NCBI RefSeq assembly: GCF_002269345.1
Contig: NZ_CP022889.1
Coordinates: 806,001 to 870,000 of the forward strand
Length of the DNA stretch: 64,000 nt
Direction: 5' to 3'
Source: Tsuneonella mangrovi
GTDB taxonomy: Bacteria; Pseudomonadota; Alphaproteobacteria; Sphingomonadales; Sphingomonadaceae
A program made the position numbers and the translations under genes. This document shows, piece by piece, positions 53,771 through 64,000 of this stretch (positions are counted from its first letter, which is position 1; the number at the start of each line of letters is the position of its first letter). The notes beneath the pieces are model-generated. The model had not been told where the DNA came from and ran no database searches. It saw nothing but the letters and a program-made list of their open reading frames with translations.

Positions 53771-54578
53771 CCTTGGCCGCGCTTGCCGGCCGGTCTTCTC
53801 GCCGCGGAGCGCGCATGGCGTCGGCAATGAGCCGATCCTGCTCTGCTCGGCTGAGACGCCGCCATCCGTCGCGTTCGAGCAGCTCGAGGGGGCGGTAGCG
53901 GACCTTGTACTGCATCCTGTCGGAGCCCTCGACCCAATAGCCGAGATATACATAGCCCAGGCCTTCCTCGGCAGCGCGGCGGATGTGGTCGAGAATGATG
54001 TAGTTGCCAAGCCCGGTTCGCGCCTCGTGTTCCGGGTCGTAGAACGAGTAGATCATCGACAACCCGTCGCCCTGCCGGTCGGTCAGGCAGGCACCGACGA
54101 GGCGGCCCGGCTGCGACCCTTCGGCGGGCTCCCTGTACTCGATGACATAGCTGGAGACAGGCGTGTGTTCCACCATATCCGCGTAGTCGATGTCGTCCAT
54201 CGCGGCCATGCCGCCCCCCGGGTGACGCACCCCGAGATACTTGCGAAGCAGGTCGAACTGTTCGGTAGTCGCCCATGGACGACACTCGGTAGCAACGAGG
54301 TTGCTGTTGCGTTTCAGGTTACGCTTTTGCGTGCTCGAAGGTTCGAATTCACGCGCGGGGATCCGGACCGAGATACACGCCTGGCAATCGAGGCAGCTCG
54401 GCCGGTAGGCAACCGTCTGGCTGCGGCGGAACCCGATGCGCCCTAATGCTTCGTTGAGCTGGTCGGCGTGCGGGCCCTTGAGTTCGGTGAACACCTTCCG
54501 CTCGCTCCGCCCCGGTAGGTACGGACACGGCGCCGGGCTGGTCACGAAAAACCGGGGGAATCGAACTGGTGCCGTCAC
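53736..54578 (-). CDS. bpt: Aspartate/glutamate leucyltransferase (Bpt, N-end rule)
   Basis: The protein is 280 aa. The arginyl/leucyl-tRNA-protein-transferase fold is marked by [23 protein letters not shown], the cysteine motif [12 protein letters not shown], and [19 protein letters not shown]. It adds leucine to N-terminal Asp/Glu and feeds the ClpS/ClpAP N-degron route. The start is GTG at 54578. The stop is embedded 35 bp into tamA, giving a bpt-tamA-tamB operon. Confidence 0.92.
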
Positions 54579-54668
54579 GGATCTGGCTGCGTCCTCTTGT
54601 CAGCGAGAATCGGGTGTGGTGCGAACTTGGGAGGACTATGCCTTGCGAGGACCGTCGGTAAAAGACCC

Positions 54669-54689
54669 TTAACCATCTATCTTGGTTAA
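54669..54689. repeat. Palindrome with CtrA-like half-sites in the bpt upstream region
   Basis: TTAACCA and TGGTTAA are perfect arms around a 7-nt centre in an AT-rich 185-bp gap between bpt and ilvA. The half-site TTAACCAT resembles CtrA binding motifs of alphaproteobacteria. It may be an operator of bpt. Confidence 0.4.
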
Positions 54690-54763
54690 CAAAGACTTAT
54701 TTTGCACAACTGATATTTGGTTACTGGCACACCGGGGAAACTACCGGATTCGCGCACCGGGAA

Positions 54764-56014
54764 TCAGTCGAGTTCGACCTGGCTCACGGCGTAACCCTTG
54801 CCCTTGAGCGCAGCGACCAACGCCTCGAGCTGATGCCGATCGCGTGCTTCGCACTCGATATCTGTAATCAGCCCCTTGGCCGGCAGCGTCGTGAAGATCC
54901 GCTGATGGTAAATCTCGATGATGTTGACATTGTGCGCGTCGAACTCGCGCATGACCTTGAACAGCGCGCCGGGGCGATCCTGCAAGGTGATCCGCAGCCG
55001 CGCAAGGCGACCCGACCGCGCGAGGTCGCGCAGCAGGACATTGGCCAGCAAGCGGGTGTCGATATTGCCGCCGCACAGAACCAGCCCGATCTTGCGCCCC
55101 TCGAACCGTTCGGGATGCGCCAGCACCGCCGCCAGTCCGGCCGCGCCAGCGCCTTCGACGACGGTCTTCTCGATCTGCAACAGCAGGCTGACGGCACGCT
55201 CGAGCTGGGCTTCGTCGACCAGCAGGATGTCGTCGACCTGTTCGGCGATCACCTGCGACGTGAATTCCCCGGGGGCCTTGACTGCAATGCCTTCCGCGAG
55301 AGTGTCACCACCGCATGGCAAGTCGGCCCCTTTGATGCGATCGTACATCGAAGGATAGAGCGCCGCCTGCACGCCCACCACATCGAGCGGCGGATCGAGC
55401 GACTTGGCGACGGTCGACATGCCCGAAATGAGCCCGCCGCCACCGATCGGCACGACAATGCAATCGAGATCCGGCGCGTCGGCGAACATTTCGAGCGCGA
55501 CAGTTCCCGCTCCCGCGGCCACGTTCGGATCGTCGAACGGATGGACAAACGTCAGCCCCAGTTCCTTCTCGAGCTTGCGCGCATGGGCGTAGGCCTCGTC
55601 GAACGTTTCGCCTTCGAGCACGACGTTGCCACCGACGCTTTCGGTCTGCATGACTTTTACAGTCGGGGTCGTGCGCGGCATCACGATCGTTACCGGGACG
55701 CCTAGTCGCGTTCCGTGGTAGCTGAGCCCCTGCGAGTGGTTGCCCGCCGAGGCCGCGATTACGCCGCGCGCACGCTGCTCGTCGGTCAGCTGCAGAAGCG
55801 CGTTGAGCGCGCCGCGCTCCTTGTAAGCAGCAGTGAACTGCAGGTTCTCGAACTTGAGCCAGATCTCCGCACCGCAAATCTGCGACAGCGTGATCGAGTG
55901 CATCGTGGGCGTGTGCACCACTGCGCCGGCAATGCGTGTTTGCGCTGCGCGAACGTCGTCGATTGTCAGCGGCAGGTTGGTTGCCGGGCGGCTGGCGGTA
56001 TTGCTCTGGCTCAT
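54764..56014 (-). CDS. ilvA: Threonine ammonia-lyase with C-terminal ACT domain
   Basis: The protein is 416 aa. The PLP lysine is Lys65 in FTAAYKERGALN; SAGNHSQGLSYHGTRLGVP and PIGGGGLISGMSTVA are the substrate and phosphate loops. The C-terminal 75 residues form an ACT domain (LRITLQDRPGALFKVMREFD), which usually mediates allosteric control. The short length resembles the TdcB-like class with ACT rather than the 510-aa E. coli IlvA. It makes 2-oxobutanoate for isoleucine. The start MSQSNTASRP was chosen over upstream in-frame starts. It diverges from the amidohydrolase. Confidence 0.9.
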   Translation of the reverse strand: MSQSNTASRPATNLPLTIDDVRAAQTRIAGAVVHTPTMHSITLSQICGAEIWLKFENLQFTAAYKERGALNALLQLTDEQRARGVIAASAGNHSQGLSYHGTRLGVPVTIVMPRTTPTVKVMQTESVGGNVVLEGETFDEAYAHARKLEKELGLTFVHPFDDPNVAAGAGTVALEMFADAPDLDCIVVPIGGGGLISGMSTVAKSLDPPLDVVGVQAALYPSMYDRIKGADLPCGGDTLAEGIAVKAPGEFTSQVIAEQVDDILLVDEAQLERAVSLLLQIEKTVVEGAGAAGLAAVLAHPERFEGRKIGLVLCGGNIDTRLLANVLLRDLARSGRLARLRITLQDRPGALFKVMREFDAHNVNIIEIYHQRIFTTLPAKGLITDIECEARDRHQLEALVAALKGKGYAVSQVELD

Positions 56015-56105
56015 CGTGCGATGCGCCCTAGGGGATTCCGCGCGCCGGGGGAACACGCGATTTGCCACGCTTTGCACTGCCCGGAAAACCGCTATGGATG
56101 GGGTC

Positions 56106-57776
56106 ATGCCGAAGTTCCGATTGTTCGCCGCTGCCCTTGCTGGCCTGATCGCCCTCCTCTCCGCATCGGTTCATGCCGACACACTGGTCGACAACATCCA
56201 GGGAATTTCGGTCGATCGCGAAGGCAAGGTCACCCGTTTCACCGGGATTTGGATCGACAACAACGGGCGTATCAAACAGTTACTCGCACGCGGTGACAAG
56301 CGACCCGAACACCCGGCCTACGTTGTCGACGGCAAGGGTGAATACGTCCTCCCCGGGCTGATCGATTCGCACCTTCACGTAATGGGCATCGGTTTTGCGT
56401 TGCTGACGCTCGACCTGTCCGACACAACCTCGCTGGCCGAGGCGCAAGCCAAGATCAAAGCCTACGCCGCCGCCAATCCCGACCACCGCTGGATCCTGGG
56501 ATCCGGCTGGAATCAGGAGAAATGGGGACTCGGCCGATTCCCGACCGCGGCCGAAATCGATTCTGTGGTACCCGATCGCCCGGTCTTGCTGGAGCGCGCC
56601 GACGGCCATGCACAGTGGGCCAACAGTGCCGCAATGGCCGCTGCCGGGATCACCGCCAAGACCGCGGACGTGCCGGCTGGCCACATCGAGCGATTGCCCG
56701 GCTCGCGCCAACCGGCAGGCGTTTTCGTCGATGGCGCGGTCTCGCTGTTCGACAAGGTCGTGCCCGAACCGCGCCCGGCCGATCGCGACCTCGCGCTTGC
56801 CAAGGCGCAACAATTGCTGCTGTCCTATGGCGTCACCGCCGCGGCTGACATGGGCACGACAATCGAGGACTGGCAGAGCTTCCGCCGGGCCGGGGATTCG
56901 GGGGGGCTGCGGATCCGCATCATGTCCTACGCACTGGGCACCAAGGCGATGGAACTGATCGGCGGACCGGGACCCACACCGTGGCTCTACAACGACAAGC
57001 TGCACATGGGCGGCGTGAAGCTCTACCTCGACGGCGCGCTCGGTTCGCGCGGAGCGTGGCTGAAAGAGCCCTATTCCGATGATCCGAAGAACACAGGACT
57101 GCCGCGGTTGACGGGCGACCAGTTGCGGAACCTGATGAGCCGCGCGGCGCTCGACCATTTCCAGGTCGCGGTCCACTCGATCGGCGATGCGGCCAATGCG
57201 GAAATGCTCGATGCGATCGACGAACTCTCCGAAACTTACAAGGGCGATCGGCGGTGGCGAATCGAACATGCGCAGATTGTCGATCCGGCGGACATTCCGC
57301 GCTTCGGAGAACACGGGATCATCGCCTCCATGCAGCCTACGCACCAGACCTCTGACCGGCTGATGGCTGAAGCCCGGCTGGGGCCGGACCGGCTCGGCGG
57401 GGCCTACGCCTGGCGCTCGATCGCAGCCGCTGGCGGGCATCTTGCATTCGGTTCCGATGCGCCGGTCGAAAAGCCCGACCCATTCGCCGGGATCGCCGCG
57501 GCGATCAGCCGGACCGATGCCAATGGCGAGCCGTTCGGCGGGTGGATGCCGCAGGAGACGGTCACCAGAGAAACCGCGCTGGCAGCCTATACGGCTGGTG
57601 GCGCGTGGGCCGGATTCGCCGAGGGACGCTTCGGCGAGCTCAAACCCGGCGAATGGGCCGACTTCGTCATCGTCGACCGCGATCCGTTGTTGGCCTCGCC
57701 TGAACAAATCCGCGCCACCCATGTGCTGCAAACATGGGTGGGCGGCGAGAAGTTTTACGAGGCATCCGCGAACTGA
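56106..57776 (+). CDS. Secreted amidohydrolase (family 3)
   Basis: The protein is 556 aa. A signal peptide (cleavage after about residue 24, SVHADT) is followed by the amidohydrolase core: VLPGLIDSHLHVMG (metal-binding HxH), KLYLDGALGSRGAW, HSIGDAANAEMLDAID, IEHAQI, and LAFGSDAPVEKPDPF. This is the YtcJ-like amidohydrolase-3 group acting on amide or N-formyl substrates; the substrate is unknown. Location should be periplasmic. An in-frame ATG at 56094 (MDGVMPKF) is a possible earlier start. A stem-loop at 57841 follows the gene. Confidence 0.88.
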   Translation: MPKFRLFAAALAGLIALLSASVHADTLVDNIQGISVDREGKVTRFTGIWIDNNGRIKQLLARGDKRPEHPAYVVDGKGEYVLPGLIDSHLHVMGIGFALLTLDLSDTTSLAEAQAKIKAYAAANPDHRWILGSGWNQEKWGLGRFPTAAEIDSVVPDRPVLLERADGHAQWANSAAMAAAGITAKTADVPAGHIERLPGSRQPAGVFVDGAVSLFDKVVPEPRPADRDLALAKAQQLLLSYGVTAAADMGTTIEDWQSFRRAGDSGGLRIRIMSYALGTKAMELIGGPGPTPWLYNDKLHMGGVKLYLDGALGSRGAWLKEPYSDDPKNTGLPRLTGDQLRNLMSRAALDHFQVAVHSIGDAANAEMLDAIDELSETYKGDRRWRIEHAQIVDPADIPRFGEHGIIASMQPTHQTSDRLMAEARLGPDRLGGAYAWRSIAAAGGHLAFGSDAPVEKPDPFAGIAAAISRTDANGEPFGGWMPQETVTRETALAAYTAGGAWAGFAEGRFGELKPGEWADFVIVDRDPLLASPEQIRATHVLQTWVGGEKFYEASAN

Positions 57777-58109
57777 GACAGGGAGCCATTAACTCAATGT
57801 CAACTATCGGCTTCTAGGCCGCGAGATACCCCGTTCGGCAATTCGGCACGCGCTTGGCGCGCTGTGCCGAATCCGCATTCTTTTTCCGGGAACACCCCGG
57901 AAATACGAGCGTTAAGGGGCCAAGAGTGTGATTCCCGGTCGGTTTACGTAATCGAATTCGTATCGGCCGGACGTTAAAGGGTTGGATTGTCGCGAGGGAA
58001 CCGGGCGGAATTTACAAGCAATTGCTCTCATTTGCGGTTGCTTCAGGCCCTTACATCCCTTAAGCCGTTCCACAGATCGAATTTATTGCTTCTAGAGGGA
58101 GACACTAGA
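57777..58109. other. 333-bp intergenic region, hairpins only
   Basis: No gene is visible. It holds a stem-loop at 57841-57872, a 7-bp hairpin TTCCGGG/CCCGGAA (57884-57902), and an AT-richer stretch up to the ribosome binding site AGAGGGAGAC just before the 58110 gene, whose promoter should lie here. No clear -35/-10 pair was found. Confidence 0.6.
57841..57872 (+). terminator. Stem-loop after the amidohydrolase gene
   Basis: ATTCGGCAC pairs with GTGCCGAAT, with an inner GCGC/GCGC stem and a 3-nt bulge. CCGCATTCTTTTT follows, so a weak rho-independent terminator is likely. Confidence 0.55.
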
Positions 58110-58328
58110 ATGAAGTTCCGTAACATTGCAGCCGCCACAGCTGCTGTATCGCTGGCAGTTGCTCCGGTTATGGCTCAGGCCGCTCCGGCATCGCGCGCTT
58201 CGGCTCCGGCCAAGGACACGAGCAAGCTGGCAGGCGGCCCGCTCATTCTGGCTGTTCTCGCCGTTTCGGCGATTATCGCCGGTGTCGTGATTGCCGCGAG
58301 CAACAACAACACCGCTGTCAGCCCGTAA
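58110..58328 (+). CDS. Small secreted or membrane protein, hypothetical
   Basis: The protein is 72 aa. A signal-peptide-like N-terminus (MKFRNIAAATAAVSLAVAPV, cleavage near AQAAP) and a second hydrophobic segment (LILAVLAVSAIIAGVVIAAS, about 45-64) are separated by a basic Ser/Ala/Lys stretch. If the signal is cleaved, a single-pass membrane peptide remains. I recognise no family; similar small proteins occur in sphingomonads by my recollection. It has a good ribosome binding site (GAGGGAG) and its own strong terminator, so it is likely well expressed and monocistronic. Confidence 0.75.
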   Translation: MKFRNIAAATAAVSLAVAPVMAQAAPASRASAPAKDTSKLAGGPLILAVLAVSAIIAGVVIAASNNNTAVSP

Positions 58329-58356
58329 ACCGGGCGGCACGTTCGATTTCAGAAGA

Positions 58357-58380
58357 ACGGGGCCCCGGCCCCGTTTTTTT
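58357..58380 (+). terminator. Rho-independent terminator of the small protein gene
   Basis: CGGGGCC and GGCCCCG form the stem (8 bp with the flanking A-T pair), with a run of at least seven T after it. It lies about 28 bp after the stop at 58328. Confidence 0.92.
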
Positions 58381-58418
58381 GTGCCTGAATTCTGTTGTCG
58401 GCCGGCGCTCGCGTGCTT

Positions 58419-59333
58419 TCAGCCGGAAGCGGGGATACTTTCGAGCGCAGAACGACGTAGCTTCGCTTCCACGGCGACCATCCGGCTGCCAGCCGCTTCC
58501 GCACGGCGCCACAGCCGGTCCTGCTCCTCGCGCGACGACATGACGCTGGCCTGCGCCTCGATACATGCGAGTCGCATGCGGTCGCTTGGATGACAGACCG
58601 CGAAATCTGCTGCCAGATCCCTCGCCGCCTCGCTGCCCAAACCCACAGCGATGCGCATGAACGTCTCGTTCGCTCCGCTTGTCAGCACCCGTGCGACCGT
58701 GCCCGCCGCGGTGTCGAAAGCGTATTGGTCGAACCACGGCTGCACCGGGCAGGTCGCCATGACATTGAGCGAGATCGACAACGAACTTGGCGGAAACTGC
58801 GCATGCACGTCGCGGTGCGCGCGATAGTGCATGATCTTTCCAGGACTCAAGGTCGCCCGCTCGACGAACCGCAAGCCCGCATCCTCGCCGGGAAAACCGG
58901 CGATGCGTTCGTAGTCGAACTCGTAGTAGTCGCTGGCGTAGCCTGGCCCGAAATAGCCCACGGTCAGGAAATCGAAGTTGTGATCGTGCGGCAACCCGTA
59001 GGCGAACGCCTGCGCACCGCTCGCTTGCATGATGTGCTCATCCTCCGACGGCCAGATGTTGGCGCGCAGGAAAAACCCACCGCGCGCGGGAGACAGCATG
59101 ATCGCCTGCGGTCCGTAACCGCCGTTGTCGCTGTCGCTGGCCGCCGCCTGCGCGAGTTCGGCTGCGAGAATATCGCCAAGGAAGGTGCGGTTGTTGGCCA
59201 ACCGCTTGAGCCAGCGCGCCGTACCATCGACGCTGTCCCGATCGCTGGGATCGAACCCTTCGGCCGCGATCGCATCGCGGCATTCCTCGAGCGAGCATTC
59301 CGTTTCGTCGGCGATCGCGATCACGCGGGGCAT
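58419..59333 (-). CDS. Cupin-like metal-binding protein of the peptide locus, hypothetical
   Basis: The protein is 304 aa. A helical N-terminal third is followed by GLPHDHNFDFLTVGYFGPGY (residues about 118-137), LSPGKIMHYRAHRDVHAQFP (about 164-183) and SISLNVM. The spacing of His residues (HDH...H...H) and the beta-rich sequence suggest a cupin-type metal site. The C-terminal 75 residues are helical. Its second half aligns by eye with that of the gene at 59321 (LSPG/FEPG, HPSDRMRLACIEA against HSGDPDVRWQALREC), so the two look like paralogues. It overlaps that gene by 13 bp. Start MPRVIAIADE. Some homologues may be misannotated as transposase; no transposase catalytic triad is visible. Confidence 0.72.
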   Translation of the reverse strand: MPRVIAIADETECSLEECRDAIAAEGFDPSDRDSVDGTARWLKRLANNRTFLGDILAAELAQAAASDSDNGGYGPQAIMLSPARGGFFLRANIWPSEDEHIMQASGAQAFAYGLPHDHNFDFLTVGYFGPGYASDYYEFDYERIAGFPGEDAGLRFVERATLSPGKIMHYRAHRDVHAQFPPSSLSISLNVMATCPVQPWFDQYAFDTAAGTVARVLTSGANETFMRIAVGLGSEAARDLAADFAVCHPSDRMRLACIEAQASVMSSREEQDRLWRRAEAAGSRMVAVEAKLRRSALESIPASG

Positions 59334-60295
59334 GGTTCGCGCTCCAGTTCGGCGAGTTGCGGATAGCGCGCAACCAACTGTGCACGCAGCGCTGCGGCAT
59401 TGCCCGCCAGCGGATCGGACGGTTCGCGGGCAATTGCGCACAAGCGGGTGAAGCCGATTGCAGTATCGAGCGCGAGGCATTCGCGCAGCGCCTGCCAGCG
59501 AACGTCCGGGTCGCCTGAATGCGTTAGCTCGACCAACCGTGGCACGGCGTCGGGATGCTTCGTCCGCGCCAGCACTGTCAGCGCCATCAACCGGCGGCTC
59601 GACTTGCGATCGCCTGACGCGCGGTGGACCAACTCGCCGGTATCGATCCGGAATTCACGGCTCGGCTCGGGGTCGTTCGCAGTGCGCGACAGGCGGAGCG
59701 TGACGAGCCGACCATCGATCGAGTCGAACATTCGCGCCGAACGCGAACCTTCTTGCACGAGTCGATCGCCCGGTTCGAACTCCCGGGATTCGTGAGCAAA
59801 GCGCGCCTGCTGGTCACCACCGCTGCGTGTGACCAGCCGGATCCTGGCCTTACCCGCCAGGCACACCTCGTGGCGCTCGGCATCGACGAAGGCGATCGTC
59901 TGCTGCTTCGGGCATTGCGAAAAGGCGAACCCGTCATGCATCGTCAGTGCCAGCGCCGCAGGACCCTGCGCAGCGACCTGGACCAGCGCGTAGCCGTGCT
60001 CGTACTGGAAGCGCATCGGTATCGTCACCAGCGGGTCGAGCCGCATCTGCTCGACCACCGTTTCGACCAGGTCGCCGACAAACGCCTGCGCGGCCTTCGG
60101 ATCATGCACCAACGGTTCGAGCACCGGACACTCCGCCAGCGGAGCCCCGGCAGCGTAGTCGCGCATCGCGTCCATCGCCGCGACCACCTCGGAGCGGGCG
60201 TGCCACGCGGTCATCGCTTGCCTCAAGCGCTCGGCGGAAAGGAGCTGCGGAGCAGGGTCGCTCCGCAGCTCGGCAAGGATCGGGTCGATCCGCAC
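59321..60295 (-). CDS. HEAT-repeat/cupin-like protein of the peptide locus, hypothetical
   Basis: The protein is 324 aa, starting with GTG at 60295, 4 bp after the stop of the 55-aa gene. The N-terminal 90 residues are helical, the centre is beta-rich (LVTIPMRFQYEHGYALVQV, REFEPGDRLVQEGSRSARMF), and the C-terminus has HEAT-like helices (PDAVPRLVELTHSGDPDVRWQALREC). It resembles the downstream 304-aa protein in order and key residues but has lost the HDH pair, so it may be a non-metal partner. Function unknown. It is in an operon with both neighbours. Confidence 0.7.
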   Translation of the reverse strand: MRIDPILAELRSDPAPQLLSAERLRQAMTAWHARSEVVAAMDAMRDYAAGAPLAECPVLEPLVHDPKAAQAFVGDLVETVVEQMRLDPLVTIPMRFQYEHGYALVQVAAQGPAALALTMHDGFAFSQCPKQQTIAFVDAERHEVCLAGKARIRLVTRSGGDQQARFAHESREFEPGDRLVQEGSRSARMFDSIDGRLVTLRLSRTANDPEPSREFRIDTGELVHRASGDRKSSRRLMALTVLARTKHPDAVPRLVELTHSGDPDVRWQALRECLALDTAIGFTRLCAIAREPSDPLAGNAAALRAQLVARYPQLAELEREPCPA

Positions 60296-60299
60296 CCGG

Positions 60300-60467
60300 T
60301 CAGAGCCCGAGCAGTGCGAGCCCGTTGCTCTGTTCGTAGAGGTAGACCATCAGGATCACGAGGCGGTCATCGGTGTACGATGTCGAAAAGTGCGACAGGC
60401 TACCGAAGATTCCGGTCATGGTTTCAAGGCTGGGCAAGCTGGCAAGCTCGATCGTCGGCAAGTTCAT
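60300..60467 (-). CDS. 55-aa peptide, first gene of the three-gene locus
   Basis: The short reading frame starts at ATG 60467 with GGGAG eight bases upstream and ends at TGA 60300-60302. The protein begins MNLPTIELASLPSLETMTGI, contains FGSLSHFSTSYTDD, then a hydrophobic stretch RLVILMVYLYEQ, and ends NGLALLGL. There are no cysteines. The next gene starts 4 bp later. The ribosome binding site, the tight spacing and the codon use support it being real. It could be a precursor peptide, a small membrane-associated protein or a toxin-like peptide; none can be chosen from the sequence. Confidence 0.62.
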   Translation of the reverse strand: MNLPTIELASLPSLETMTGIFGSLSHFSTSYTDDRLVILMVYLYEQSNGLALLGL

Positions 60468-60581
60468 GGGCAAGTCTCCCTCGATGGGCGCGACCCCTTC
60501 GCACCCGGCTGGCGAACCCTGCCGAGCGTTGTTCCCGTTTCGAAATTAAATTGTTGTAATATCCCCCTACGCCCGCCACCC

Positions 60582-61040
60582 ATGCCGCCGATGGCCAGTT
60601 TCCCGGAAACCTTCGATCCGAAATACCTGTCGCACTACGTCATGCGCAGGGCCCATCCCGGTTGGCTGGGGATGCGTTACGTCGACAGCGGTGAAGATTG
60701 GGTTGAACTCGAGCTGCCCTGGCGTGCGGACCTGGTGGGCGACGAAGAGCGCCCGGTGCTCGCCTCGGGCCCGATCGTCAGCCTGATGGACATGGCCTCG
60801 GGCATGGCGATCTGGACCGCCAACCGGGTGTTCAAGCCCGTCGCAACGCTCGACCTCAGGGTCGACTACATGCGCCCAGCAAAGGAACGGAATTCGGTGT
60901 TCGGCCGGGTTCGGTGCTATCGCCGCACCCGCTCCGCCGCGTTCGTCAACGGGATCGCGCACGACGGCGATCCGGACGATCCGGTTGCGCACATCGCGGG
61001 CGTGTTCATGTACATCAAGGCGGAGGGGATCATTGGCTGA
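60582..61040 (+). CDS. PaaI-like hotdog thioesterase 1
   Basis: The protein is 152 aa. The hotdog fold is marked by ASGPIVSLMDMASGMAIWTA (the catalytic helix region), TLDLRVDYMRPAKE and a closing beta strand AGVFMYIKAE. Members of this PaaI family hydrolyse acyl-CoA thioesters; the substrate is unknown. The start is ATG 60582 or 60591; no strong ribosome binding site is seen, so a short leader is possible. The stop overlaps the next gene by 8 bp, which starts with TTG. Confidence 0.86.
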   Translation: MPPMASFPETFDPKYLSHYVMRRAHPGWLGMRYVDSGEDWVELELPWRADLVGDEERPVLASGPIVSLMDMASGMAIWTANRVFKPVATLDLRVDYMRPAKERNSVFGRVRCYRRTRSAAFVNGIAHDGDPDDPVAHIAGVFMYIKAEGIIG

Positions 61041-61431
61041 ATTGCTGACCGCCTACGCCCGCTCGCTCGGCATATCAGTGGATGACGATGCCGGCGAGAC
61101 CCCGGTTCTGCGGCTCGAATTTTCTCACGATATCGAGGGGCGCCCCGGCGCGCTTCACGGCGGGGCAACCGCTGGCCTGCTTGAAACCGCAGGCTATGCT
61201 GCGCTTCGGACCGAACTCGAGCGGCGCAAACGCGTCCACCTGCTCAAACCGATCAACATCACGGTCGAATATCTCTCCGCCGGATTGCCGAAGACCAGCT
61301 TCGCGCAAGGGCGGATCGTGCGGCTTGGACGGCGCAATGCCAACCTGACGGTCGAGGCCTGGCAGGACGATCGTAAGCGCCTCATTGCGACCGCAGTGAT
61401 GAATATCCTGATGGTGTCCGAAGGCGAATGA
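61033..61431 (+). CDS. PaaI-like hotdog thioesterase 2
   Basis: The protein is 132 aa. ALHGGATAGLLETAGYAALRT is the hotdog helix with its HGG, and PINITVEYLSAG follows. Start is TTG at 61033: GGAGGGG sits 6 bp upstream and no in-frame ATG fits. It overlaps thioesterase 1 by 8 bp. The two tandem hotdog proteins probably form a heteromer or work on related acyl-CoAs. It converges with mrcA with only 2 bp between the stops. Confidence 0.86.
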   Translation: MAELLTAYARSLGISVDDDAGETPVLRLEFSHDIEGRPGALHGGATAGLLETAGYAALRTELERRKRVHLLKPINITVEYLSAGLPKTSFAQGRIVRLGRRNANLTVEAWQDDRKRLIATAVMNILMVSEGE

Positions 61432-61433
61432 GC

Positions 61434-63593
61434 TCAGTTGCCGCCCGAGGGCGGAGCGGCGTTCGCATCTGTGGGCTGGCCGGGCGAAACCTTGAGCCCG
61501 TTCTGGTCCAGGCGCAGGTCGATTGGAATGCCGTTGACCTGTGTAGAAACCGTCACTCCATCCTGCCCGACCTGCAGCCGCGATCCCTTGTCGTCGAGCG
61601 GGATATCCTTGAGCTCCGGCACATCCATCGGCTTGATCGGCCCGCCCGGATCGGTGCTGGCGGTCGGTTGGGGCGCCGGCGCAGGAGCGGGGCCGCGCAG
61701 CGCCGAGACCATGAAATCGTGCCAGATGCGTGCCGGGATCCCGCCGCCATGGATGCCCTTGAGCGGGGTGTTGTCGTCGTTGCCGACCCACACGCCCACC
61801 ACCAGGTCCCCGGCGAAGCCCACGAATAGCGCGTCGCGGTTGTCTTGTGTGGTGCCGGTCTTGCCGTAGTTCGGGACGGACAGCATCGCTGCACGCCCGG
61901 TTCCGTTGTTGATGGTCGCGCGCAACAATTGCTCGATCTCTGCATGGTTCTTGGCCGAAAAGCTGTGCCGCTTGCTCCAGTTCCACGCCTGCACAAGCCA
62001 GCCACCCTGCGATTGCACGAAGGCGTGGGGCTCCACCGGAAAGCTATTGCCAGCCACTCCCGCATAGGCGGCAGTAAGCTGCATCAGCGTGGTCGATGCG
62101 GTGCCGAGGGCAAGGCTGGGATCGCCAGCCGGCATCGGCCCGGTCATGCCCAGATCGCGCGCCATCGCGATTACCTTGTCGCTGCCCACGGTCTTGAACA
62201 ACCGGACTGCGGCTACGTTGCTCGAGTGTGCGAAGGCGTCCTCGAGCGAAATCGTCTTCGAGTAATTCCCTCCGGCATTCTGCGGGCGATAGCTGCCTTC
62301 GGTGATCGGCATGTTGTCGATCCGGTCATCCGGCGTCATGCCCGAGCGCAGGGCGGCAAGGTAGACGAACAGCTTGAAGGTAGAACCGGGCTGGCGCTTG
62401 GCCTGCGTTGCGCGGTTGAATGGCGACTTTTCGTAGTCCTTGCCGCCAATCATTGCCACGACTTCGCCGTTGGGGCGCATAGCTACCAGCGCGACTTGCG
62501 CCTTGCCGACCGGTGCCCGCTCGACCACCCGGCGGGCGATCGACTGGAGCCGCGCGTCGAGCGTGGTGGTCAAAGTGACGTGCGAATAGCCCTGGGGGGT
62601 CATCTGGCGCGCCTGGGGCAGCGCCCAGTCGGCAAAGTAAGTGCCGGTCGGCAAATCGGGCCGGTTGCGGACGTGCAATTTGGGCGGACGGATCCGCGCA
62701 GCTTGCGCCCTGGTGATCATCCCTGTCTCGACTTCGGCCTGGACGACCATCTTCATCCGGTTGGCGGCCCGCTGGTAGTGCTTGGTCGGCGCATAGGCGG
62801 AAGGAGCCTGCACCAGCCCGGCGAGCATCGCCGCTTGCGACCGGGTGAGGTCTTCGGGTTCGCGCGAGAAATAGTGCAGCGAGGCAGCGCGAAGGCCGTA
62901 GGCATTGTCTCCGAAATAGGCGTTCGAGAGATACCGCTCGAGGATCTGGTCCTTGCTCAGCCATGCCTCCAGCCAGAACGCGATCAGCATCTCGCGCGCC
63001 TTGCGGCCCAGCGTCTGGCGCGGGGTGAGGAAAGTGAACTTGGCGAGCTGCTGGGTGATCGTGCTGCCGCCTTCGGTCCGGTTGCTGGTGAGGTTCGACC
63101 ATGCAGCGCGGGCGATCCCACGCGGATCAATCCCCCAGTGGCTGTAGAACCGGCGGTCCTCGATCGCGACGAACGACTGTGGCACGTATTTCGGGAGCTT
63201 TGCTATCTCGACCGGCTTGTCGATATTCGCGCCATTGCGCGCAATCGGCGTTCCGTTCGATGCAAGTAGCGTCAGTTGCGGCGGGGCGATCGGCTGGAGC
63301 GACTTGGACAGCGGCGCGGTAACCGCCAGCCACGCGACCAGCACGATGAACAGGCCGATGAGCCCGGCCACGATCCGCACCGCCCACCGTAGCTTGCCGC
63401 GCCCCTTGCGAGCGGGAGCAAGATCATCGTCGGACAGCGGCGCGGCGCGATCGAGCCGATGGTCCCACTCATCGAACTGCGCGTCGTCGAGCGGCCCGTC
63501 GCCGTAGGAATCGTGGAGGGCGAAATAGCCGCGGTGCCCGTCGCCTTCGCGACCGGCACGCCCCTGCTTCTTCCATGAATCGAACGGCGACAT
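61434..63593 (-). CDS. mrcA: Bifunctional penicillin-binding protein 1A
   Basis: The protein is 719 aa. A cytoplasmic acidic N-terminus (to about residue 67) and one transmembrane helix (72-92) precede the GT51 domain with catalytic Glu145 in AIEDRRFYSHWG. The transpeptidase domain has STFK (Ser404, Lys407), SSN (457-459) and KTGT (578-581). It polymerises and cross-links peptidoglycan. The start is ATG 63593, with a GTG just upstream (63596) as an alternative; there is no good ribosome binding site, because a 24-bp palindrome covers that position. The C-terminal tail is Pro/Asp-rich. Confidence 0.94.
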   Translation of the reverse strand: MSPFDSWKKQGRAGREGDGHRGYFALHDSYGDGPLDDAQFDEWDHRLDRAAPLSDDDLAPARKGRGKLRWAVRIVAGLIGLFIVLVAWLAVTAPLSKSLQPIAPPQLTLLASNGTPIARNGANIDKPVEIAKLPKYVPQSFVAIEDRRFYSHWGIDPRGIARAAWSNLTSNRTEGGSTITQQLAKFTFLTPRQTLGRKAREMLIAFWLEAWLSKDQILERYLSNAYFGDNAYGLRAASLHYFSREPEDLTRSQAAMLAGLVQAPSAYAPTKHYQRAANRMKMVVQAEVETGMITRAQAARIRPPKLHVRNRPDLPTGTYFADWALPQARQMTPQGYSHVTLTTTLDARLQSIARRVVERAPVGKAQVALVAMRPNGEVVAMIGGKDYEKSPFNRATQAKRQPGSTFKLFVYLAALRSGMTPDDRIDNMPITEGSYRPQNAGGNYSKTISLEDAFAHSSNVAAVRLFKTVGSDKVIAMARDLGMTGPMPAGDPSLALGTASTTLMQLTAAYAGVAGNSFPVEPHAFVQSQGGWLVQAWNWSKRHSFSAKNHAEIEQLLRATINNGTGRAAMLSVPNYGKTGTTQDNRDALFVGFAGDLVVGVWVGNDDNTPLKGIHGGGIPARIWHDFMVSALRGPAPAPAPQPTASTDPGGPIKPMDVPELKDIPLDDKGSRLQVGQDGVTVSTQVNGIPIDLRLDQNGLKVSPGQPTDANAAPPSGGN

Positions 63594-63597
63594 CACT

Positions 63598-63621
63598 ACT
63601 GTATTATCAAGACAATACAGT
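63598..63621. promoter_or_regulatory. Operator-like palindrome over the mrcA start region
   Basis: ACTGTATT and AATACAGT are perfect 8-bp arms around an 8-nt centre, 5-28 bp upstream of the ATG. A GATAAT that could be a -10 lies inside it. It may be a repressor site or an RNA hairpin covering the ribosome binding site. The arm spacing does not fit the LexA box (CTG-N10-CAG). Confidence 0.5.
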
Positions 63622-63681
63622 TAGCGCTAGCCGATATGTGCTGAACCCCGGCTGACGCAATTCAACACGTCCGCTCCCGAA

Positions 63682-64000
63682 TCAGAGGACGATCTCTAAG
63701 GCCTGTCCGTCAGCAACCGAGAGATAATCGGCTGCCAGTTCGTAGCCGAGATCGCCATACGACGCTGCGGTCATGTGCGACAGGTAATCGACGTTGTTGA
63801 TATACCCCGTCATGATCTCGTTGCCGTAGGTCGCCTCGTCCCAGTGCGATCCGGCAGTACCGCTTCCGCCATCGGTCTCGACATAGATTTTGGTTGTGCC
63901 GAACTGGATATTTGATTGCGCCTTCGCCAGCGTGCCGGTGAACAAGTTGTTCGTATCGACCAGCCCGAGCATGTCCCAGATCGAACCGAAGCCGAGGCTG
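63682..64000 (-). CDS. Leishmanolysin-like (M8) metalloprotease, C-terminal part
   Basis: The gene runs off the right edge; the visible frame is open from base 64000 to the stop at 63682. It reads SLGFGSIWDMLGLVD at the edge, then SHWDEATYGNEIMTGYIN and LSHMTAASYGDLGYELA. LGFG(S/T)IW directly follows HExxH in leishmanolysin-type proteases, and the later SHWDE...NE(I/L)MTG with AS..DLGY is their C-terminal signature. The catalytic HExxH itself should lie just beyond the window. It would be a secreted or surface zinc protease. It ends about 60 bp upstream of the mrcA palindrome on the same strand. Confidence 0.75.
   Translation of the reverse strand, partial: SLGFGSIWDMLGLVDTNNLFTGTLAKAQSNIQFGTTKIYVETDGGSGTAGSHWDEATYGNEIMTGYINNVDYLSHMTAASYGDLGYELAADYLSVADGQALEIVL

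What the first reader, a model, noticed from the sequence alone, without database searches (positions are those of the whole stretch)
58419..60467. Three-gene locus: 55-aa peptide plus two paralogous cupin/HEAT-like proteins
Seen: a 55-aa gene (60300-60467) with its own ribosome binding site, then a 324-aa gene starting 4 bp later, then a 304-aa gene overlapping by 13 bp. By eye the two large proteins share order and motifs (LSPG/FEPG, a beta region, and HPSDRMRLACIEA against HSGDPDVRWQALREC). Only the second keeps HDHNFDF and MHYRAHRDVH, which could bind a metal. Inference: a peptide with one active and one degenerate partner, as in a peptide-modifying, sensing or toxin/antitoxin-like unit. 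No known family explains the trio.
Basis: partly seen in the sequence, partly recalled or inferred. Interest (0 to 1): 0.72.

Follow-up and report, generated by a model that had tools for sequence, protein, structure and literature searches.

The report
Peptide with cupin enzyme and lookalike
A small gene for a leader-bearing, valine/isoleucine-rich peptide is inherited together with a cupin protein that keeps a three-histidine metal site and with a similarly built partner that has lost it, which looks like an undescribed bacterial system for chemically modifying a ribosome-made peptide.

Summary
The three genes are real, lie exactly as described, and form a conserved unit. Gene 3 (58419-59333) was found in 104 of 298 genomes of its family. 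In 66 fetched loci with homologues the partner gene was beside it in 65 and the small frame in 63. The small protein has a constrained N-terminal segment (LPKIDLSSLPDLxxxTGxFGS), a freely changing linker, a constrained DDxIVVIMVYxYE segment and a free tail. In divergent loci a leader-like half often persists while the C-terminal half becomes other I/V/A-rich sequences. One locus carries two such frames in tandem with alike leaders and unlike C-termini. Both large proteins are predicted as N-helices, a cupin and C-terminal HEAT-like helices, and both models hit thiol dioxygenases in the PDB. Only gene 3 keeps H116xH118...H177, which align with cysteine dioxygenase histidines. Best reading: a RiPP-type system, with the small gene as precursor, gene 2 as metal-less partner, and gene 3 as a mononuclear-metal oxygenase acting on the peptide. 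The reaction, product and role are unknown. No description was seen in the paper searches made.

The parts
60300..60467 (-). Small gene, 55 aa: proposed precursor peptide (leader-like residues 2-23, linker, core-like residues 33-45, tail)
   Evidence: homologues in 63 of 66 loci; pN/pS by segment
60399..60464 (-). Leader-like segment NLPTIELASLPSLETMTGIFGS, homologous to LPKIDLSSLPDLxxxTGxFGS
   Evidence: pN/pS 0.41-0.48; coordinates checked; often recognisable in divergent loci
60333..60371 (-). Core-like segment DDRLVILMVYLYE, proposed substrate region
   Evidence: pN/pS 0.51-0.59 between a linker at 0.93-0.98 and a tail at 0.98-1.04; coordinates checked
59321..60295 (-). Gene 2, 324 aa: metal-less cupin with C-terminal HEAT repeats; proposed leader-binding partner
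   Evidence: HEAT_2 E 4e-8; model pLDDT 94.2; Foldseek top hit a B. subtilis cysteine dioxygenase; no conserved metal ligands in 27 homologues
58419..59333 (-). Gene 3, 304 aa: three-histidine cupin (thiol-dioxygenase-like fold) with C-terminal HEAT-like helices; proposed peptide-modifying metalloenzyme
   Evidence: model pLDDT 90.4; Foldseek top hits thiol dioxygenases; invariant H116, H118, H177; hhalign to CDO_I proteins E 3.6e-6
58968..58988 (-). Metal-site motif HDHNFDF (H116 and H118)
   Evidence: coordinates checked
58803..58832 (-). Second motif MHYRAHRDVH (third ligand H177)
   Evidence: coordinates checked

Best explanation
A RiPP-type (ribosomally made, post-translationally modified peptide) system. 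The small gene encodes a precursor whose N-terminal half is a recognition leader and whose I/V-rich C-terminal stretch is the part acted on. Gene 2, a cupin without metal ligands carrying HEAT repeats, binds the precursor and presents it. Gene 3, a similarly built cupin that keeps a three-His metal site of the thiol-dioxygenase kind, uses a mononuclear metal (probably iron) and O2 to oxidise the core. Shown here: gene conservation, leader/core pattern, shared predicted domain order, conserved His triad in one protein only. Inferred: binding roles, metal identity, and that a covalent change happens at all. Unknown: the reaction, how the leader is removed, and what the product does.
For: Gene 3 in 104 of 298 family genomes; partner beside it in 65 of 66 and small frame in 63 of 66 loci. 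Segment pN/pS: leader 0.41-0.48, linker 0.93-0.98, core 0.51-0.59, tail 0.98-1.04. In 31 divergent partner loci a fixed rule picked one frame each: 26 of 31 had a C-terminal 12-mer with 8 or more of I/V/L/A/F/M against 66 of 417 background frames; 18 of 31 against 17 of 417 had five or more I/V; 22 of 31 against 30 of 417 had [LIV]Px[LIMY] within the first 35 residues. Two tandem frames with alike leaders and unlike cores. An Alteromonas plasmid homologue lies between two ABC transporter sets. H116/H118/H177 invariant in 30 sequences and aligned to CDO_I histidines. Both models resemble thiol dioxygenases.
Against: No exporter or dedicated protease was seen beside the trio in the sphingomonad loci examined; the neighbours typed are housekeeping or general genes, including a signal peptidase cluster in 14 of 60 loci. 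Within the close group the core is well conserved, unlike many defensive peptides (recalled). No Pfam or NCBIfam model matches the peptide or gene 3. A modified peptide has not been seen. By eye no single core residue is common to all the divergent peptides, so there is no obvious target residue. For L092, L111 and L114 the rule found no convincing frame.
Confidence: 0.6

Rival explanations
1. The small protein is an unmodified third subunit: its N-terminal half docks on the cupin pair and its hydrophobic stretch anchors the complex to a membrane or another protein, while gene 3 acts on an unknown small molecule.
For: A conserved docking half and a hydrophobic stretch are also what an anchor would show. 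No export or leader-protease gene was seen beside it in the sphingomonad loci examined. The locus sits beside a thioesterase in 18 of 35 genome-contig loci, a stable chromosomal address.
Against: By eye the hydrophobic stretch is often only 8-14 residues long, short for a membrane helix. Two tandem frames with alike leaders but unlike C-termini fit precursors better than anchors. ABC transporters surround the Alteromonas copy.
Confidence: 0.22
2. Gene 3 is a protein-cysteine dioxygenase like ADO or plant PCO, and the peptide is a thiol-bearing substrate or oxygen sensor.
For: Best fold matches are thiol dioxygenases including PCO4 and ADO. Some divergent peptides carry a Cys in a VGGxxC motif.
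Against: Only 2 of 57 distinct peptides of the close set contain Cys. The positions equivalent to the CDO His and Tyr of the Ser-His-Tyr set are Asn190 and Met192 in the window protein (role of the set recalled).
Confidence: 0.08
3. A toxin/antitoxin, defence or signalling unit with the peptide as effector.
For: Three closely packed genes with a small first gene; patchy presence (no copy at the syntenic place in 10 of 10 other genomes of the genus; six of these also searched whole without a match).
Against: PADLOC gives no hit for gene 3 or the peptide, and only a weak HEAT match for gene 2 (E 0.0018). In many loci the site beside thioesterases is a stable chromosomal address.
Confidence: 0.06

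Closest known systems
Thiol dioxygenases (cysteine dioxygenase PF05995, 3-mercaptopropionate and mercaptosuccinate dioxygenase, PCO/ADO)
   Same: Cupin fold in Foldseek (best E 2.5e-8, TM 0.42 by query and 0.62 by target length); HxH plus a later His at equivalent positions.
   Different: No Pfam match at the limits used; the His and Tyr of the Ser-His-Tyr set (recalled) are Asn and Met; extra HEAT-like C-terminus; found with a cupin partner and, in most loci, a small peptide gene.
Crocagin biosynthesis (CgnA precursor, CgnC dioxygenase, homologous CgnB/CgnE peptide binders; PMC10070186, passages seen)
   Same: A short precursor, an oxygenase, and dedicated precursor-binding proteins in one operon.
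   Different: CgnB and CgnE resemble aminopeptidases, not cupins, and CgnC needed 2-oxoglutarate. Here the partner is built like the enzyme itself.
MNIO/DUF692 RiPP enzymes with partner proteins (MbnBC, TglHI; search listing and abstract starts only)
   Same: An iron enzyme working as a holoenzyme with a partner protein on a precursor peptide.
   Different: MNIO enzymes are TIM barrels with two or three irons (recalled). Here both proteins are predicted cupin-HEAT proteins.

Membership tests
RiPP system | Short gene encoding a precursor next to modifying enzymes | tested here: met
   63 of 66 loci; in 31 divergent partner loci a fixed rule gave a hydrophobic-ended frame (8 or more of 12) in 26, background 66 of 417. 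That genes 2 and 3 modify anything is inferred.
RiPP system | Conserved leader and separable, more variable core | tested here: met
   Segmental pN/pS; leader-like half kept with new C-termini across lineages; tandem frames. Against it: within the close group the core itself is constrained.
RiPP system | Core is covalently modified by the linked enzymes | not testable with these tools
   needs mass spectrometry
RiPP system | Leader removal and export genes | tested here: inconclusive
   None seen beside the trio in sphingomonad loci (not every neighbour was typed); ABC transporter sets flank the Alteromonas copy
Cysteine dioxygenase family PF05995 | Matches the family model | tested here: not met
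   0 Pfam families for the window protein at E 1; PF05995 not among the matches of 59 members at E 0.1; no PF05995 match in the own genome at E 1e-5
Cysteine dioxygenase family PF05995 | Three-His metal site | tested here: met
   H116, H118, H177 invariant in 30 sequences, aligned to the family's histidines. Metal binding itself not tested.
Cysteine dioxygenase family PF05995 | Ser-His-Tyr second-sphere set (recalled) | tested here: not met
   Ser188 kept, but Asn190 and Met192 stand at the His and Tyr positions
Crocagin-like system | CgnB/CgnE-type peptide binders (aminopeptidase-like) | tested here: not met
   Gene 2 is predicted as a cupin with HEAT repeats
Toxin/antitoxin or defence system | Similarity to known defence components | tested here: not met
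   PADLOC: none for gene 3 or peptide, weak HEAT-ARM match for gene 2. Other toxin/antitoxin collections were not searched.

The most novel reading that the evidence does not exclude
A new RiPP class: a thiol-dioxygenase-fold enzyme turned from free thiols to oxidising an aliphatic, usually Cys-free peptide core, with its own dead duplicate (pseudo-cupin) serving as the leader receptor. The core chemistry would be new because most cores of the close set lack the Cys residues and Ser/Thr clusters that many known classes use.
Probability: 0.42. Interest if true: 0.78.

Novelty: new variant of a known kind. Interest (0 to 1): 0.62.

Why it matters
Cupins of the thiol dioxygenase kind are known for small thiols and protein N-terminal cysteines (recalled). 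A version tied to a dedicated peptide, with a lookalike that has lost the metal site, would add an enzyme type to peptide natural-product chemistry and show how leader recognition can arise by duplication of the enzyme. The genes are short, frequent in sphingomonads and easy to co-express, so the idea can be tested directly.

Tried and rejected
Narrow profiles of the two proteins did not match each other (hhalign Prob 0.1%); only broad profiles did. Split tests show the match is carried by the C-terminal helices (E 2.2e-7). The cupin parts alone are weak (E 0.007) and so are the N-terminal helices (E 0.008) and both together (E 0.021), against 0.41 and 0.94 for mismatched controls. HEAT repeats resemble each other generally (both profiles hit designed alphaRep proteins), so common descent of the cupin parts rests mainly on fold and domain order. 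Gene 2's Foldseek list also holds vicilins, auxin-binding protein and sigma-1 receptors, so its cupin is not specifically CDO-like.

The gene 3 to CDO_I match was significant only with the broad profile (E 3.6e-6; narrow profile 0.052; cupin part of the broad profile alone 3.5e-4); gene 2 gave 0.0032 (broad), 0.0024 (narrow) and 0.014 (cupin part). The CDO_I set held 10 proteins from 14 fetched loci: for L130 the script found no frame, and L134, L137 and L139 gave wrong frames and were dropped.

DUF3089 and thioesterase neighbours were considered as pathway members and set aside. The thioesterase also stands, with the amidohydrolase, in 10 of 10 genus relatives lacking the trio at that place. 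The DUF3089-type cluster occurs in 25 of 60 loci (one representative typed; 22 with a member of 300 aa or more) and lies on the opposite strand in all 20 loci listed. Own-genome searches found single copies of gene 3 and the peptide. Rfam gave nothing in 54000-64000. The promoter scan found none, and its only terminator-like site lies inside gene 3.

Ten paper searches (67 was aimed at crocagin) showed no description. They cover open-licence PMC only, I saw listings and abstract starts, and for only part of the papers found was listed (20 of 34, 10 of 14, 12 of 56). A word search inside one paper on leader-recognition elements found neither cupin nor HEAT.

Full report
What is there. On the minus strand, a 55-aa frame (60467-60300), a 324-aa frame (60295-59321) and a 304-aa frame (59333-58419) follow each other with a 4-base gap and a 13-base overlap. 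Upstream are two thioesterase genes on the plus strand and then a penicillin-binding protein gene on the minus strand. Downstream, on the plus strand, are a 113-aa frame and an amidohydrolase. The host genome is a single 2.70-Mb contig. Titles of the 36 named-collection loci are mainly Novosphingobium, Qipengyuania, Erythrobacter and other sphingomonads.

The trio is a unit. Gene 3 was found in 104 of 298 genomes drawn from the family, 5 of 385 drawn from the class (4 of them in the family) and 15 of 398 drawn from the phylum (13 in the family). The draws share some genomes. Two plasmid records, of Alteromonas stellipolaris (40% identity) and Vibrio sp. (27% over 40% of the query), also hold it. 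I looked closely at 66 loci: the 30 best and the 36. Gene 2 was found in 65 and the small frame in 63. The misses are contig ends (L042, L066) and L056. These 66 include the window itself and some genomes twice; 59 distinct small-gene sequences remain. L064's small-frame hit is weak (E 0.17).

The small gene is a protein gene with modules. Over all pairs of 59 sequences, pN/pS is 0.41 in the N-terminal segment, 0.93 in the linker, 0.51 in the DDxIVVIMVYxYE segment and 0.98 in the tail. For the 936 pairs with pS 0.05-0.6 the values are 0.48, 0.98, 0.59 and 1.04. These are uncorrected proportions with high pS, so the true ratios are probably lower. Leader and core are constrained, with free sequence between and after them.

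In divergent relatives the leader-like half often stays while the C-terminal half changes: for example IDLAAIPELKTSVAIHGS then VKQQEVGGPICLGIAISLFIAL (L074), or LPELASPVDKAG then ATESVAIIAVIWAIVIAS (L077/L115). A fixed rule was applied to 31 divergent partner genes, duplicate loci left out and L064 counted here too. It was recounted against 417 background frames from the same loci, picked frames removed. A C-terminal 12-mer with 8 or more of I/V/L/A/F/M was present in 26 of 31 against 66 of 417; five or more I/V in 18 of 31 against 17 of 417; [LIV]Px[LIMY] in the first 35 residues in 22 of 31 against 30 of 417 (at least one of these, L110, matches inside its hydrophobic part). L092, L111 and L114 failed the rule, although L114 has a fitting frame further upstream.

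L067 carries two tandem small frames, each with a ribosome-binding-site-like stretch by eye. Their leaders are alike (DVNQLPCLNLEAGMAD and NVNELPALEFDAGLAN) and their C-termini unlike. The Alteromonas locus also has two small frames, between a HlyD/ABC/MacB set and an ABC ATPase/permease pair. In 9 of 30 divergent loci examined a relative of the window's thioesterase lies in the locus, so cores have changed at one chromosomal address (inference).

The two large proteins. AlphaFold models (pLDDT 90.4 and 94.2, pTM 0.83 each) show the same order: N-terminal helices, a cupin-type beta region, C-terminal helices. Foldseek against the PDB puts mercaptosuccinate, 3-mercaptopropionate and other thiol dioxygenases first for gene 3 (best E 2.5e-8). 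A B. subtilis cysteine dioxygenase comes first for gene 2 (7.8e-7), where generic cupins also rank high. Broad profiles of the two families match over 255 columns (Prob 95.3, E 2.3e-8), but one search shows that most of this signal is in the C-terminal helices, and narrow profiles did not match. That they are duplicates is therefore well supported for architecture and C-terminus, and probable for the cupin part.

The metal site. In 30 divergent gene-3 proteins, R90, W94, H116, H118, F120, G126, G129, G131, Y132, L162, H177, Q179 and S186 are invariant. A profile of ten CDO_I proteins aligns with gene 3 (Prob 87.5, E 3.6e-6 over 157 columns). HDH falls on HDH, H177 on the third histidine, and SLNVM on SIHVY. 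The triad is thus kept while the His and Tyr of cysteine dioxygenase's Ser-His-Tyr set (recalled) are Asn and Met. In 27 gene-2 proteins only W267 is invariant, and no His is among the nearly invariant columns.

Distribution and history. None of the 10 other genomes of the genus has a recognisable copy at the place between the amidohydrolase and the thioesterase; the site is empty there. Six of the ten were also searched whole without a match. With the thioesterase neighbour shared across other genera, loss in the genus is more likely than a recent gain here (inference).

How it works, most likely. The pattern of leader, linker, core and tail, precursor multiplication, a likely metalloenzyme and a dead lookalike is what a RiPP system with an enzyme and a leader-binding partner would show. 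Crocagin biosynthesis works in a comparable way with unrelated binders (PMC10070186, passages seen). The chemistry is open. Oxidation of aliphatic or acidic side chains, or cross-linking to the conserved Tyr, are possible; cysteine oxidation is unlikely because only 2 of 57 distinct peptides of the close set have Cys. The rival that the peptide is an unmodified anchor or third subunit is not excluded.

Novelty. No family model in Pfam or NCBIfam covers gene 3 or the peptide of the window, nor does PADLOC. Over 59 gene-3 members Pfam gave only scattered weak matches. Ten literature searches in open-licence PMC showed no description (listings and abstract starts only). Subscription papers were not searchable.

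Noticed in passing
L091 2761-10929 (Alteromonas stellipolaris plasmid pASTE61-200): Homologous pair and two small frames lie between a HlyD/ABC/MacB-FtsX set and an ABC ATPase plus ABC-2 permease, with a conjugation-type coupling-protein gene nearby: an export-equipped, plasmid-borne version.
   Followed up: partly
L092 7063-8619 (Vibrio sp. ED002 plasmid p1-ED002): A shortened pair, with gene 3 cut short of most of the C-terminal helices, and a small frame with an LPEF motif downstream instead of upstream.
   Followed up: partly
L067 2374-7094: Two trios side by side, the second with two tandem precursor-like frames.
   Followed up: yes
L111 (G614, another family of the class): Pair present, but the upstream small frame has no I/V-rich stretch; it may be another core type or a wrong frame.
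   Followed up: no
window 58340-58385: A GC-rich inverted repeat between gene 3 and the convergent 113-aa frame looks like a shared terminator by eye, though the terminator scan did not flag it.
   Followed up: no
window 57987-58328 (+): 113-aa frame with a signal-peptide-like stretch and a hydrophobic C-terminal segment by eye; TrbC pilin match below cut-off (E 0.008).
   Followed up: no
L120-L129, place between amidohydrolase and thioesterase: No trio at this place in 10 of 10 other genomes of the genus.
   Followed up: yes
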